Shown in pieces: positions 27,801 through 39,800 of a DNA stretch of 64,000 bases. The notes under the pieces are model-generated. The model was given only the letters and a program-made list of their open reading frames with translations. It was not told the DNA's origin and did no database searches. The stretch lies in NCBI GenBank assembly GCA_026874595.1, contig CM049307.1:34080862-34144861 (forward strand). The letters are read 5' to 3'. The DNA is from Sipunculus nudus. Its lineage: Eukaryota; Annelida; Sipuncula; Golfingiida; Sipunculidae. Within the stretch, counting starts at the first letter, position 1. Every line of letters begins with the position of its first letter. The translations under genes and the position numbers were made by a program.

Positions 27801-30800
27801 TTTTGTCTACATTCTTAAAATGATGGCTAAATCTCTGATCTGCATCCAACCCCACTGCACTTGTGTCATACACATACACTACCAAAGTACATATAAATAG
27901 ACAAATTTGTCAGACTCCACATTCAATTAATAACCATTCCACCAAAATAAAAAGGCCATGCAAGCAAGCAGTGTTAAATAGTAAAAGGTAGAAGCAGGTG
28001 AAGTGAAGCATATGTGGGATTATCAGCCAATCACTGAAGAAACCTGGCCACTGTTAAATAACTGACACTACATCTTAATACAACCCCATGACACAATACC
28101 TGTATGACCACATAGAAGAGCCCCAGAGGTATGATCACTGTAGCAAACAGGGGTGTACTCATTGAAATCACAATGAGTGTCGCAATGTTTTTCAGGAAAG
28201 TGTGCAACCAAGATTGTAATGTTTTAGGAATGACTGTGTCTATGCCATCAATGTCTTTGGAAAACCGGTTCAGGAGTCGCCCTATCGGAGTGGTGTCGAA
28301 AAACAGCATGGGTGATCGCAGACAGTTGGTCAGGAGCTTGCCATGGAGGCCTAACGAAGCTTGTACTGCACCACGTGCCAGAGCATACGATGATGCAAAG
28401 AGAGCAACCCCTGTCAATGACATGAAAAGCTGCTGTAAGGACAGCGTGGCCACCTACTTCTATTAGAGACCAAGATCTGGTGATCAGTGTTCTTTAACCT
28501 TCTCAGTACTATCTATTGATGTTTCTTCCCTTTGATGGTGATGGTATCTCATGTCACACAACAACAAAACTATTGTCCTAAATAAAATAACACAAATCTA
28601 TTTTGGCTGCAAATAAAAAGCTGCGAAATTAGTCAACAACATACACATCACATGCACAGATTAAAATTGTCAACTGTTGTGGCAAGCTGTGAATGAAGTG
28701 CTGATATCACACATTTTGAACCAAATCCATACACTTTATTACATACATGTCATCCTCTTCCCCAGCTCTTCCAGAAATGCATAATTTAATGACTCTGTTT
28801 CCAAAATGAATTTTACAATCAATAATTTTTTAGATCAATGATTTTATTATTTTTTCCATGGATCCCTTATTAAGCATATTTTAACTGGTCTTCAGCTTAA
28901 GTCATGTTTGGAGAATTAGAATAAAATGAAGAAAAATGCCTTTGGATGTGTTTTGTCTGGTGCATCAGTAAATACAATCAGGCCTTCATTTAAGGCATCT
29001 AAGATATAGATTTTGTTATGGCACATTTCAGTGGACTTCTGGGTGACCACTCTGGCATACAACTCTATGCCACTCATGAATGGGTAAAAATAAAATAAAC
29101 AAAGGCATTAATGTTCTTTCACTTAACAAATGAAATAACATAAGCAGCGTGCCATTGTTACATAAATTTACTTTAACACTAATACCAAAGATTTGAAAGA
29201 CAGGATTTGACCTGTTGGAATGCAAATTGGCGGAAAGCGCAAAATCACAAATAGCACCAAGGCACCAGGGTATCAACATATATAAACCACGCAGGATGTT
29301 AAAACTTCTGTATCTCAGGGTAACCTCTACCTAGCATCCCATCAGAATTTATGTCAAGCTTGTATTTAAGGACAAAGGTTAAATGAAAAATAAGCCAATT
29401 TGTGGAATTTATGTCCCCCCATCCCTTCTGCCTCTTGTTATATTCGCTTCCTGTGATTTTCATGCTTGCCTTCAGAATATGTTTTAGTTTTTGTTTCCCC
29501 CCTGAAGATGTCTTCACATGTCACAGTGCCTTTGTTTTAGTTTTCATTGTCCCCTGAAGATGTCTCCAAGTCATAATATTTGTTGTGAATTGGGAACATA
29601 CGGGAAAATGTTTGTCTTGGAACAGGCGATAATAAATTTTCAGACAGACACTCCAAAACTAGTCCCAACCAAGGTGTGCATTGGGGCAATCAGTGACCCA
29701 AATTGAATGAATTTGGATGATATTTAGGTAAGTTAACACATGAAAACGAAAACCTGGCGGACGGACAGAGGGACAGAAATCAAACCCAAATCAATGTCCC
29801 CCATTCCACAGAAGCGGATTGAAACAGAAACAGATTGAATATGAAGCTATCTTTTTGTTTTAAAAGAGGAACTATTGAGCAGAGTGAACTTAAATCATTT
29901 GATTGTAGATTTATAAACCAAAAGCTAGCAGGTCTTACACTCGTAAGAATGAATCAGTTTTATACATTTATGAACTGTAAACGCTCAGGCAAAGTGGTTT
30001 TGGTACCCTATTATCATTATTATCAGTAATAGTAATAATATGGATTGGATTTTCTGTCAGAATGTAAATTCATACTATGCTTTCTAGTATTCAAATTTAC
30101 AATTTCATTTTCTATCTATACATGAATACTAGACAACCTGCCATGGAAATTACTTACTCTGTTGCTTTTCACTGCAATGATGAATTCAATATTTTCATTA
30201 TTCAAGGTGCTACTTAAAGACTGGGAATGCTACTATAATTTGTTAAATGAATGTAGTACTTACATAAAAGGATAAATAAATTAATGCTATCTTTAAATAG
30301 GGGAATACTTAGAAGTACATCATTTTTGCACAAACTGAAGTTATCACAATGCCTCAAGTCCAAGATACAATATGACCGCTGCCAAATACTTTGGACATTA
30401 TCACAACCAGTATAAGTGTTCTTCTGTTTCAGTAGCTTTACGACAAAATGTACACTTATCATTTTCCCTTAAACCCCCATTTCATTAACCAGTAGTTATC
30501 AGCTGATATATCTTGCAACAATATATATTAAAAGCAGTTTGATTTGTATCAATACATATTTTAAAAAGGCAGTACAAAAATATTTTACCCCAGTGCTATG
30601 GTAGTACTGTGTTCTACAACAAGATGTCACTGCACGTGGTCTCTTCCATATGAGTGTTCCCATTCCAAATTACCTTTCTTGCAGTTGGCAAATACAGTCA
30701 CACAACAGTAGGAGTATTGTGATTTTAAAACTAGGATTTAAAGATAAAATACCAGTAGACTTTATGATTCTTTAATGCTGATAGTGTGAATAAGTAATCT

Positions 30801-36800: not shown

Positions 36801-39800
36801 TTTATAAACTATATATTTTTTTAATTTTATTTTTAACAAATTATTCATAAAGTGAATTTAAAGTCAACAGTTAAAATGAGTGATTTTGTATTTGCTTTTC
36901 AGGAAATGTTGTTAGTAATTCCTATCTGAACGTGCTTCATTAGTATTGAACATGAGTGTGTAGTATCATTTAATGCATCTGAAGCTATATATCTAATCAC
37001 AGCCAATAATCTAAGACATTACATATTACTTAATAAGCCATGTTTCACAAAAGAACTATTAAAGATTCCCTAGATCTAGTAAATAAAAGCCTGAACTAAC
37101 ATAACATTATGGTGTTTTTGACACTAAATAGAATGAGGGACTACATGTGTAATAAGAAGCAGAGTTTTACTGTAAGAATAATAACATGATTTATTAATAC
37201 AGGGCAAAAAGGGTTTGGAATGTAATTGGATGTAATCATAAAATATGGACCAGCAGTTGCATTTCAAATTATCATAAAAACAATTACAATATAAATCAAC
37301 AAGGGAATAACAAAGAAAAAGATCAAGCATGGGTGTGCAAAGGAGGTGGGGGGGATTGTTTAATGAATCAGGTTTCAATCAAACCCTCATATAAAATCTA
37401 ATAAAAATTTCACATGAAATTTGCATAGACTTATATATATATATATGTGTGTGTGGAGTATCCAAAAAAACTCTAATACTTATCAACTATGATTTTTAAA
37501 ATATAAAAAACACCTGAACAAAGTACATATCAAATCACATCCAAATTATCCATTTTGGACTAGTTGAACCTCTGCCTCTGAAACTTAAAAAAAAAAATAA
37601 CTGATTAACATATCTGTAGAAATATGAATGCCACTGTGAAAAAAAGTGATTCTCAATTTGATTTTTTTCAATTTCACAATAAAAATATAAAGGGTTAGAT
37701 AAGCCATGGAGTGTTGACATCTGTAAAAGGAAAAGTCATCTATTCTAATTACACTTACCAAGATTATATTAACACAAACTGCTGTAAAAAACAAAAAAGG
37801 CTGAGAGCAGAAAGCATATCAACTGTTTGTGCCTTATTTATTCTAATTATTTCAACCCTTCAATGATTTCTGACTGAAAGTTTCATGAGCCATAAGTTTT
37901 CAATAGTTTTTATAACAACTCTTGAATCAGAGTTGTGACAGAATTGTAACATGAGAACATATGATATCTGAAATTGTTTTGTTCTCTTATTATTATTTTT
38001 CTAGCAATATATCTCAAATTTTGACATGCAGGCTGTGTTATCTGGCTATAAAGTTATACTATAAGTGGAATGCAAAATATCCCCAGTGTACAAGAAATTT
38101 GTCTGAGATGTTTTGGTGAAAGAAATATTTGCTGAGAGAGTTTGGAGTCATGGGGATGTGTAACAGCAAAGTTTAAACAGAACAGCACTTTATTTTACCA
38201 GGCCAAATTAATCAAATTATATTATTATTATTATTACTATTATTATCATGATATAATATTTAACTAGTTCAGACCCAATGAAACACGGTTATTTACACCA
38301 TAATTTCAAGAAGTATTCCATCCCATAAAACTAGGTTATAGTTAAAGAAAAATAGTAATATAAGGGGATAATGATGTAAATATTTTGATACTGGCTATGT
38401 ACCCTCCTCAGAGGGATCTTAGTAATTTTCTTAATTGATTTCTGTAGCTCTCATTAAGTCATCACAGACTAATTCTCTTTGGCTGGGTCCTGTACAGGTA
38501 AAGCTCCAAACTGCCAGGTTAGATTTGAGAAGTCATGTAAGATGTATACTGTATCTTCAATTTTATAACATATATGGTAAAATCAAATCATTTAAACAGA
38601 TAATACAATTATGTATTCTGAATAAAGCTGAATCATCATTTAATTTGACAAAAAAGTTATAATTTCCACAGCTTAATCAATTTATATTTGAAAAGAAATA
38701 ATATTCAGTTGAATCTGGGGTAAATAGGTTGGGCTAAAAAAGAATAGGGAATGACCAAAAGACCTAATAGACACTTTTGGTACAGCACACCAGTTCACAT
38801 GAGAGAGAAAAAGAGAAGGGTAAAAAAATTATATTCGCACACTGCAGAAGACAAGATCTACTTTAGAAACACTGAAATCACATCCGATTACCTCATTACC
38901 TGAATAAGAAAATAGATAATGGCAAGAGGTGGTACAGCAACTAAGAAGATGATTGTGGTGGCAGCGATGACAATGAGAATGGATGTTGTTTGCAGGATAG
39001 TGTTGATCATTGATCTAATGGTAAATGGCATGACAAGATCAACAGTGGCCATGTCCTCTGAGACACGGTTCATAATTCGACCAATGGGAGTCTGCTCGTG
39101 GAACTGTAGAGGTACATGTAATATTTGGTTGATGAGATCACTGTGGATCTGGGTCGATGCTCTCACGCCCCCGTAAGCTGTCACATATGCAGCACTGATT
39201 TCTAACAAACCTGCAAGATAGTTGTTACTCAGTCTGCAGCACAAGGTAATCACAATTTTTGCTTAATACTGATGGCTCTACAAGCAATGCTCCCAGGGAT
39301 ATAAACCAGTTTCAAATAATAACATTCACTTATGAACAAAGTAATTTACAACAGTAAAAAGTGAATTGTATTCACCTTGTTATAAGGTTTCCTTTATCTT
39401 AACTGGAACTATAGGTCAAGGGTATCAAAAGCCTGAACATACATCTTTTAAATTAATACAGTTAATCTTGAACATTTTACAAGTGACTGTACATTTGTTA
39501 AGTTTTATATCCCTGTTACAAATTGTCATCAGAGGGTAGTCCATCTATATTAAACTGCAATCAGAGTATGACAAGAGCCCTGGAAGCTGAAACACAAATC
39601 TCCCTGTGTTAAACATTTAATCATAATCATTAATGCATGGTTATAGTAACAGGATTCACAAAATAAATGTGCATGTTTGAAATTCAAAGAAAACATGAAA
39701 ATGGCAAATTAATTTAAAATATTTGTTCTACATCAAATTTATTCATCAGCTGATTACCATTAACAATTAATATAAAATACCAGACTTTTACAGTTTGTGT

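What the first reader, a model, noticed from the sequence alone, without database searches (positions are those of the whole stretch)
28100..39210. Four-copy mutually exclusive exon cassette in MSD2 of an MRP1-type transporter
Seen: four minus-strand exons (38,900-39,210; 34,859-35,169; 31,771-32,081; 28,100-28,410), each exactly 311 bp, each phase 1 in and 0 out, each with GT-AG sites, all encoding the same MSD2 segment between exon 12 and exon 14. They differ widely in sequence (about half of residues shared in the closest pair), so they are old and kept open by selection. Since 311 mod 3 = 2, skipping all copies or joining two shifts the frame; only single inclusion gives a full transporter. 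Established, from memory: Drosophila MRP (CG6214) has variable internal exons and C. elegans mrp-1 has alternative copies of an exon in this region. Inference: one gene makes four pumps of different substrate range, and the arrangement extends to lophotrochozoans.
Basis: partly seen in the sequence, partly recalled or inferred. Interest (0 to 1): 0.92.

Follow-up and report, generated by a model that had tools for sequence, protein, structure and literature searches.

The report
Four-way swappable exon in MRP1 transporter
One animal drug-pump gene carries four interchangeable versions of the same exon, so it can probably build four pumps with different membrane helices; such exon sets are already known for this gene, but one of the four versions appears to be shared with snails and so to be very old.

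Summary
Four minus-strand exons (38900-39210, 34859-35169, 31771-32081, 28100-28410) are each 311 bp, phase 1 in and 0 out, AG...GT flanked, and encode one 103-residue MSD2 segment of an MRP1-type transporter. With 19 constant exons the model reads through with any single copy; skipping, or any of 11 multi-copy joins, stops early.

Annotated isoforms of relatives swap exactly this block: four Mercenaria isoforms differ nowhere else. Mutually exclusive splicing is very likely, though no RNA was available.

The kind is not new: citing papers say Yue et al. 2017 described such MRP arrays in helminths, annelids and molluscs as independent in each lineage. New here is evidence against independence: copy A groups with four gastropod segments (100/96) and shares residues absent from 60 other segments; a single clade of the four window copies is rejected (p=0.0095), while the gene lies outside bivalves+gastropods. 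The A grouping leans on 20 columns; without them it loses support. How the choice is made remains unproved.

The parts
38900..39210 (-). alternative exon copy A (first of four in transcription order), 311 bp
   Evidence: A-type residues shared with four gastropod segments
34859..35169 (-). alternative exon copy B, 311 bp
   Evidence: groups with a Lymnaea segment 98/92
31771..32081 (-). alternative exon copy C, 311 bp
28100..28410 (-). alternative exon copy D (last of four), 311 bp
41838..52956 (-). ten further upstream constant exons: 52891-52956, 50212-50349, 49586-49732, 48716-48794, 48291-48366, 47752-47878, 46848-47024, 46127-46294, 45600-45789, 41838-42073 (end of TMD1, NBD1, linker)
9762..21722 (-). 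seven further downstream constant exons: 21596-21722, 21192-21293, 19493-19639, 14068-14226, 13278-13444, 10746-10940, 9762-9876 (end of TMD2, NBD2, stop codon)

Best explanation
This is a cluster of four mutually exclusive homologous exons in an ABCC1/MRP1-type gene of a lophotrochozoan animal. One copy is chosen per mRNA, giving four transporters that differ only in a 103-residue part of the second membrane domain (1027-1129 in the numbering of chain 9j9f_A, which puts the pocket methionine at 1092 as the papers do). That part carries the intracellular loop with the NRFSKD motif and two positions that papers list as pocket or drug contacts (Q1088, M1092). Shown: the anatomy, the frame logic, homology of the four copies, and annotated isoforms of relatives that swap exactly this block. 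Inferred: that all four copies are spliced one at a time in this species, that wrong joins are removed by nonsense-mediated decay, that an active switch (RNA structure or splicing factors) makes the choice, and that the four pumps differ in substrate handling.
For: Four copies of equal length, phase and splice dinucleotides. Each single-copy model reads 1046 residues to one terminal stop; the skip and all 11 multi-copy joins stop early, at least 1,056 bases before the last junction. Mercenaria X1, X2, X3, X5: 6 of 6 pairs differ only within 1060-1160 of 1563. Nine Branchiostoma lanceolatum isoforms carry 7 versions of the block; Periophthalmus ABCC3 (4 isoforms, 2 versions) and Siphateles ABCC3 (2 isoforms) swap the same block; Biomphalaria X2/X3 swap it and differ by 7 more residues elsewhere. 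55 of the 122 proteins from two searches hold two or more copies, mostly adjoining, as in mis-joined tandem exons; P0011 and P0022 have them far apart. Pocket: M1092 in the hydrophobic pocket (passages of PMC8491190 and PMC8267652); Q1088 and M1092 listed as drug contacts (passage of PMC11100334). Copies A-D have F, A, R, K at the first and S, A, M, S at the second.
Against: No RNA from this species was seen, and I saw no RNA behind the relatives' isoforms, which are annotations. Some relatives' models hold two copies in one protein, such as the NCBI-named Mizuhopecten P0007 and Silurus isoform X3 P0021; these may be prediction errors or real double inclusion. Three Nasonia isoforms and two Eucyclogobius isoforms do not differ in the block. 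My search for a common docking site was not significant (15 of 200 shuffles reach the best score, in one of four layouts tried).
Confidence: 0.88

Rival explanations
1. Origin rival: the four copies arose by duplication inside the window's own lineage, as published for MRP arrays in general; the likeness of copy A to gastropod copies is convergence or long-branch attraction.
For: Published view as reported in PMC7434440 and PMC6071210. Most bivalve and amphioxus segments cluster within their own lineages in part. Without columns 48-67 the A group is not found by the free search and one clade of all window copies is no longer rejected (p=0.163). B, C, D as one clade is not rejected (p=0.086).
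Against: With all columns, one clade of all four window copies is rejected (p=0.0095); the A group has 100/96 support; columns 49, 51 and 54 are V/C, E/D and A in 5 of 5 A-types and in 0 of 60 other segments; B groups with Lymnaea with or without columns 48-67 (98/92; 99/92).
Confidence: 0.2
2. Some copies are relics or rarely used, so the gene makes fewer than four pumps, or the exons are ordinary cassette exons without strict exclusion.
For: No RNA data; gene models with two copies exist in relatives.
Against: All four are open with AG and GT in place; double inclusion always breaks the frame; relatives' annotated isoforms swap single copies.
Confidence: 0.1
3. Assembly artefact: copies of different loci or haplotypes were joined.
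For: None found.
Against: Copies share only 152-179 of 311 bases, far too few for haplotypes, and lie in order inside one gene whose exons fit.
Confidence: 0.01

Closest known systems
MRP/mrp-1 mutually exclusive exon arrays of molluscs, annelids and helminths (Yue et al. 2017, RNA Biol 14:1399; not held, known here only through citing papers)
   Same: Same gene family, mutually exclusive exons of the same length (PMC7434440 passage).
   Different: Reported as independent in each lineage; here copies A and B group with gastropod segments. I could not read the paper to compare exon boundaries, taxa or trees.
Drosophila MRP (CG6214), a cluster of eight exons (PMC6071210 passage)
   Same: [quoted passage not shown] in chained insect models the first copy follows the same GVYGALG stretch as here.
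   Different: Chained insect copies mostly break off between columns 65 and 88 of the 103, so the 3' boundary may differ; the fly and worm events are called unrelated.
Annotated isoform sets of Mercenaria, Biomphalaria, Branchiostoma MRP1-like genes and teleost ABCC3
   Same: Swap of the same 103-residue block.
   Different: Other copy numbers. The Mercenaria and Mizuhopecten segments fall in a group of 11 bivalve segments (86/88), inside a 13-row group (99/96) with a chiton and a Haliotis rufescens segment, and not with a window copy.

Membership tests
mutually exclusive exon cluster | tandem homologous exons of equal length and phase | tested here: met
mutually exclusive exon cluster | joining two copies or skipping all breaks the frame | tested here: met
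mutually exclusive exon cluster | exactly one copy per mRNA in this species | not testable with these tools
   no RNA; annotated isoforms of relatives have one copy each in the sets
mutually exclusive exon cluster | competing docking and selector RNA pairings (reported for some clusters, insect MRP included) | tested here: inconclusive
   15 of 200 shuffles reach the observed score
ABCC1/MRP1-type transporter | ABC membrane domain and alignment to MRP structures | tested here: met
   PF00664; MRP1, MRP2 and MRP3 chains are among the hits of every copy
ABCC1/MRP1-type transporter | two nucleotide-binding domains with ABCC-type motifs | tested here: met
   read in the model ([28 protein letters not shown]); relatives named MRP1-like among the best hits; motif names recalled
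ABCC1/MRP1-type transporter | N-terminal membrane domain TMD0 | not testable with these tools
   about the first 490 residues found no match in the window
insect MRP exon cluster as the same inherited exon | same exon boundaries on both sides | tested here: inconclusive
   chained insect copies mostly break off between columns 65 and 88; seen in proteins only, no insect DNA was read

The most novel reading that the evidence does not exclude
Copy A (and perhaps B) is an alternative exon kept since before the split of the window's lineage from gastropods and bivalves, so the array is a very old set of choices in one transporter gene and not a set of independent duplications. The A-type isoform, with acid in place of the lysine of the NRFSKD loop, alanine in place of a following aspartate, and phenylalanine and serine at two pocket positions, would be a distinct pump with altered coupling that animals have kept beside the standard forms.
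Probability: 0.55. Interest if true: 0.75.

Novelty: new member of a known kind. Interest (0 to 1): 0.5.

Why it matters
If copy A is shared by descent across lophotrochozoan lineages, the published picture of independent exon duplication in MRP genes needs revision, and the array becomes a test case for how alternative exons persist over very long times. It also gives a natural set of four swaps of the same pump region, including two positions listed as drug contacts, in which substrate choice can be tested with everything else held constant.

Tried and rejected
I first took a stretch near 48158-48114 for the exon before NBD1 and thought the phases clashed, hinting at a broken gene. tblastn with a scallop protein showed the fitting exon at 48291-48366, and the clash vanished. 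One search failed through a wrong start for one exon and was redone.

A docking site shared by the three inner introns: best score 36 in the last intron, above 12 of 12 shuffles at first but reached by 15 of 200 later; the three other layouts were within the shuffles. Not supported.

Direct and inverted repeats around the cassette (seed 11, length 16 or more) showed no element repeated beside all four copies. The Rfam scan at gathering cut-offs and the tRNA scan of the window found nothing.

Tree without columns 48-67: the free search no longer finds the A group, although a tree that holds it is not worse (lnL 1.42 higher, p 0.54). The A grouping therefore rests largely on those columns.

Papers in which I looked for MRP or ABCC terms and found none on point: PMC3228551 and PMC5740500 (no occurrence), PMC4465641 (no ABCC); PMC8956072 and PMC9072357 passages did not bear on the cassette.

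Structure prediction was not run: a spliced protein is not read letter for letter from the window, and full-length relatives exceed the size limit. No scan of viral or genome contigs was made.

Full report
Observation. The four exons are real and exactly as described: 311 bp, one frame, AG before and GT after. Each alone matches PF00664, and all four match the same stretch of MRP1 structures; copy C covers 1027-1129 of chain 9j9f_A without a gap (A, B and D). tblastn of all four against both strands finds no other copy in the 64 kb. Identity is 36-53 of 103 residues and 152-179 of 311 bases; third codon positions match in only 30-38 of 103, second positions in 67-79. This fits old copies under selection on the protein. 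Of the 103 columns 23 are identical in all four, and 12 of these fall in columns 33-61, the loop and its edges (my count on the string).

Gene. I rebuilt the gene from 52956 to 9762 on the minus strand: 11 constant exons before the cassette and 8 after it. All internal exon ends have AG and GT. About the first 490 residues found no match in the window, so the start of the gene lies outside or was missed. With any one copy the model reads 1046 residues and one terminal stop; with no copy, or with any of the 11 sets of two to four copies, a stop comes early and at least 1,056 bases before the last exon junction, the usual setting for nonsense-mediated decay (general knowledge).

Taxon. The constant part is closest to the annelid Owenia (84% after the cassette), then the chiton Liolophura and Haliotis asinina (82% each), among the 122 proteins then held. 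In a tree of 30 rows the bivalve+gastropod group (96/94) leaves the window out; placing the window with the gastropods is rejected (p=0.004); its tie to Owenia (67/69) and the mollusc group with the chiton but without the window (68/85) are unresolved. That tree left out nine of the 39 rows, five of them flagged there as long branches. I call the window a lophotrochozoan outside bivalves and gastropods; it could still be an early-branching mollusc.

Relatives. Three protein searches: the copy A block alone gave 2 hits among 61 candidates; the block with flanks gave 7195, of which 120 were listed; the downstream constant part gave 7968, of which 120 were listed. 214 different proteins were studied. 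In 55 of the 122 from the first two searches there are two or more copies, mostly adjoining; many look like automatic models that chained tandem exons (my reading). Where one gene has several annotated isoforms the picture is cleaner: all 6 pairs of the four Mercenaria isoforms differ only inside the block; 9 Branchiostoma lanceolatum isoforms carry 7 versions (some also differ by 12 or 6 residues elsewhere), and 6 GenBank ones carry 5; Biomphalaria X2/X3 swap the block and differ by 7 more residues; ABCC3 isoforms of Periophthalmus and Siphateles swap two versions. Three Nasonia and two Eucyclogobius isoforms do not differ in the block; two Babylonia proteins differ throughout and look like separate genes. 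Against strict exclusion, the NCBI-named scallop model P0007 holds two full copies with an extra linker, and a catfish isoform (P0021) also holds two. These isoforms are annotations; I saw no reads behind them.

Origin of the copies. From 58 labelled proteins of the 214 I took segments scoring 40 bits or more (63), dropped two (one near-duplicate, one of length 104), and added the four window copies: 65 rows, 103 columns, which the program calls few. Copy A groups with Haliotis asinina isoform X3, Nucella copy 1, Elysia copy 1 and Biomphalaria X2 (100/96). B groups with Lymnaea (98/92). C and D are unresolved. The five A-types have V/C, E/D and A at columns 49, 51 and 54, where the 60 other segments have F (59) or L (1), no acid, and no A; all five have F at column 62. 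The motif F[TSVA][ILVM]RSM is in 4 of 214 proteins, those four. A is the first copy in the window and in the chained Nucella and Elysia models. A second cross-class group (99/96) joins a chiton, a Haliotis rufescens and 11 bivalve segments, so two Haliotis species show two different types. One clade of all window copies is rejected (p=0.0095), but B, C and D as one clade is not (p=0.086). Leaving out columns 48-67 removes the support for A and the rejection (p=0.163) but not the B-Lymnaea pair (99/92). The A group had been noticed before these tests, so they are not blind. The 11 bivalve segments form their own group (86/88), and 6 of 8 amphioxus segments fall in two amphioxus groups, so lineage-specific duplication also happens.

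Literature. Grailles et al. 2003 on two variable exons of Drosophila MRP1 was seen only in reference lists; a passage of PMC4234516 speaks of splice variants of CG6214 and its mosquito and moth orthologues. PMC6071210 (passages) says tandem MRP exon arrays arose by multiple independent duplications across phyla and that competing RNA structures are reported for MRP, with docking sites downstream of the cluster. PMC7434440 (passages) says the mrp-1 event arose independently in helminths, annelids and molluscs. PMC9741552 (passages) calls fly mrp and worm mrp-1 events unrelated but in the same region. All three cite Yue et al. 2017, which is not held. My searches on mollusc and teleost cassettes listed no title that names one; the mollusc and fish papers listed were not opened, and most subscription papers are not in the library.

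Function. The block includes the positions of M1092, part of the hydrophobic pocket around leukotriene C4, and Q1088, listed as a drug contact (passages of PMC8491190, PMC8267652 and PMC11100334). Copies A-D have S, A, M, S and F, A, R, K there. A change of substrate range is therefore plausible but untested.

Switch. The introns of 1.5-3.7 kb are too long for steric exclusion, and the sites are GT-AG (general knowledge for both inferences). Frame loss is the only exclusion I can show. A shared docking site was not significant.

Verdict. A real, well-formed array of exons that is very likely spliced one at a time, a new member of a known kind, with one result that goes against the published account of its origin.

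Noticed in passing
window 10873-12542: A 99-bp tandem array of 16.8 copies sits just before the NBD2 exon 10746-10940. Each unit looks like a 3' splice site plus about 68 bp of the start of that exon (signature motif region), so the real exon start is preceded by many look-alikes: 16 array units and the real exon give tblastn hits; 10 places, the real exon included, keep the exact acceptor pattern searched. 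Open stretches of 191 and 231 codons run through it. Use of an upstream acceptor could insert 33-residue repeats.
   Followed up: partly
proteins P0147-P0150, P0201, P0202 and others: Teleost ABCC3 genes seem to carry a two-copy version of the same exon; isoforms of Periophthalmus and Siphateles differ in this block, and several other fish models chain two copies.
   Followed up: partly
proteins P0063-P0105 (part), P0212-P0214: Amphioxus MRP1-like isoforms carry at least seven versions of the block; 6 of the 8 segments in the tree fall in two amphioxus groups.
   Followed up: partly
window 57202-57259, 61496-61560, 61750-61798: Short ACGG tetranucleotide arrays upstream of the coding exons found.
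   Followed up: no
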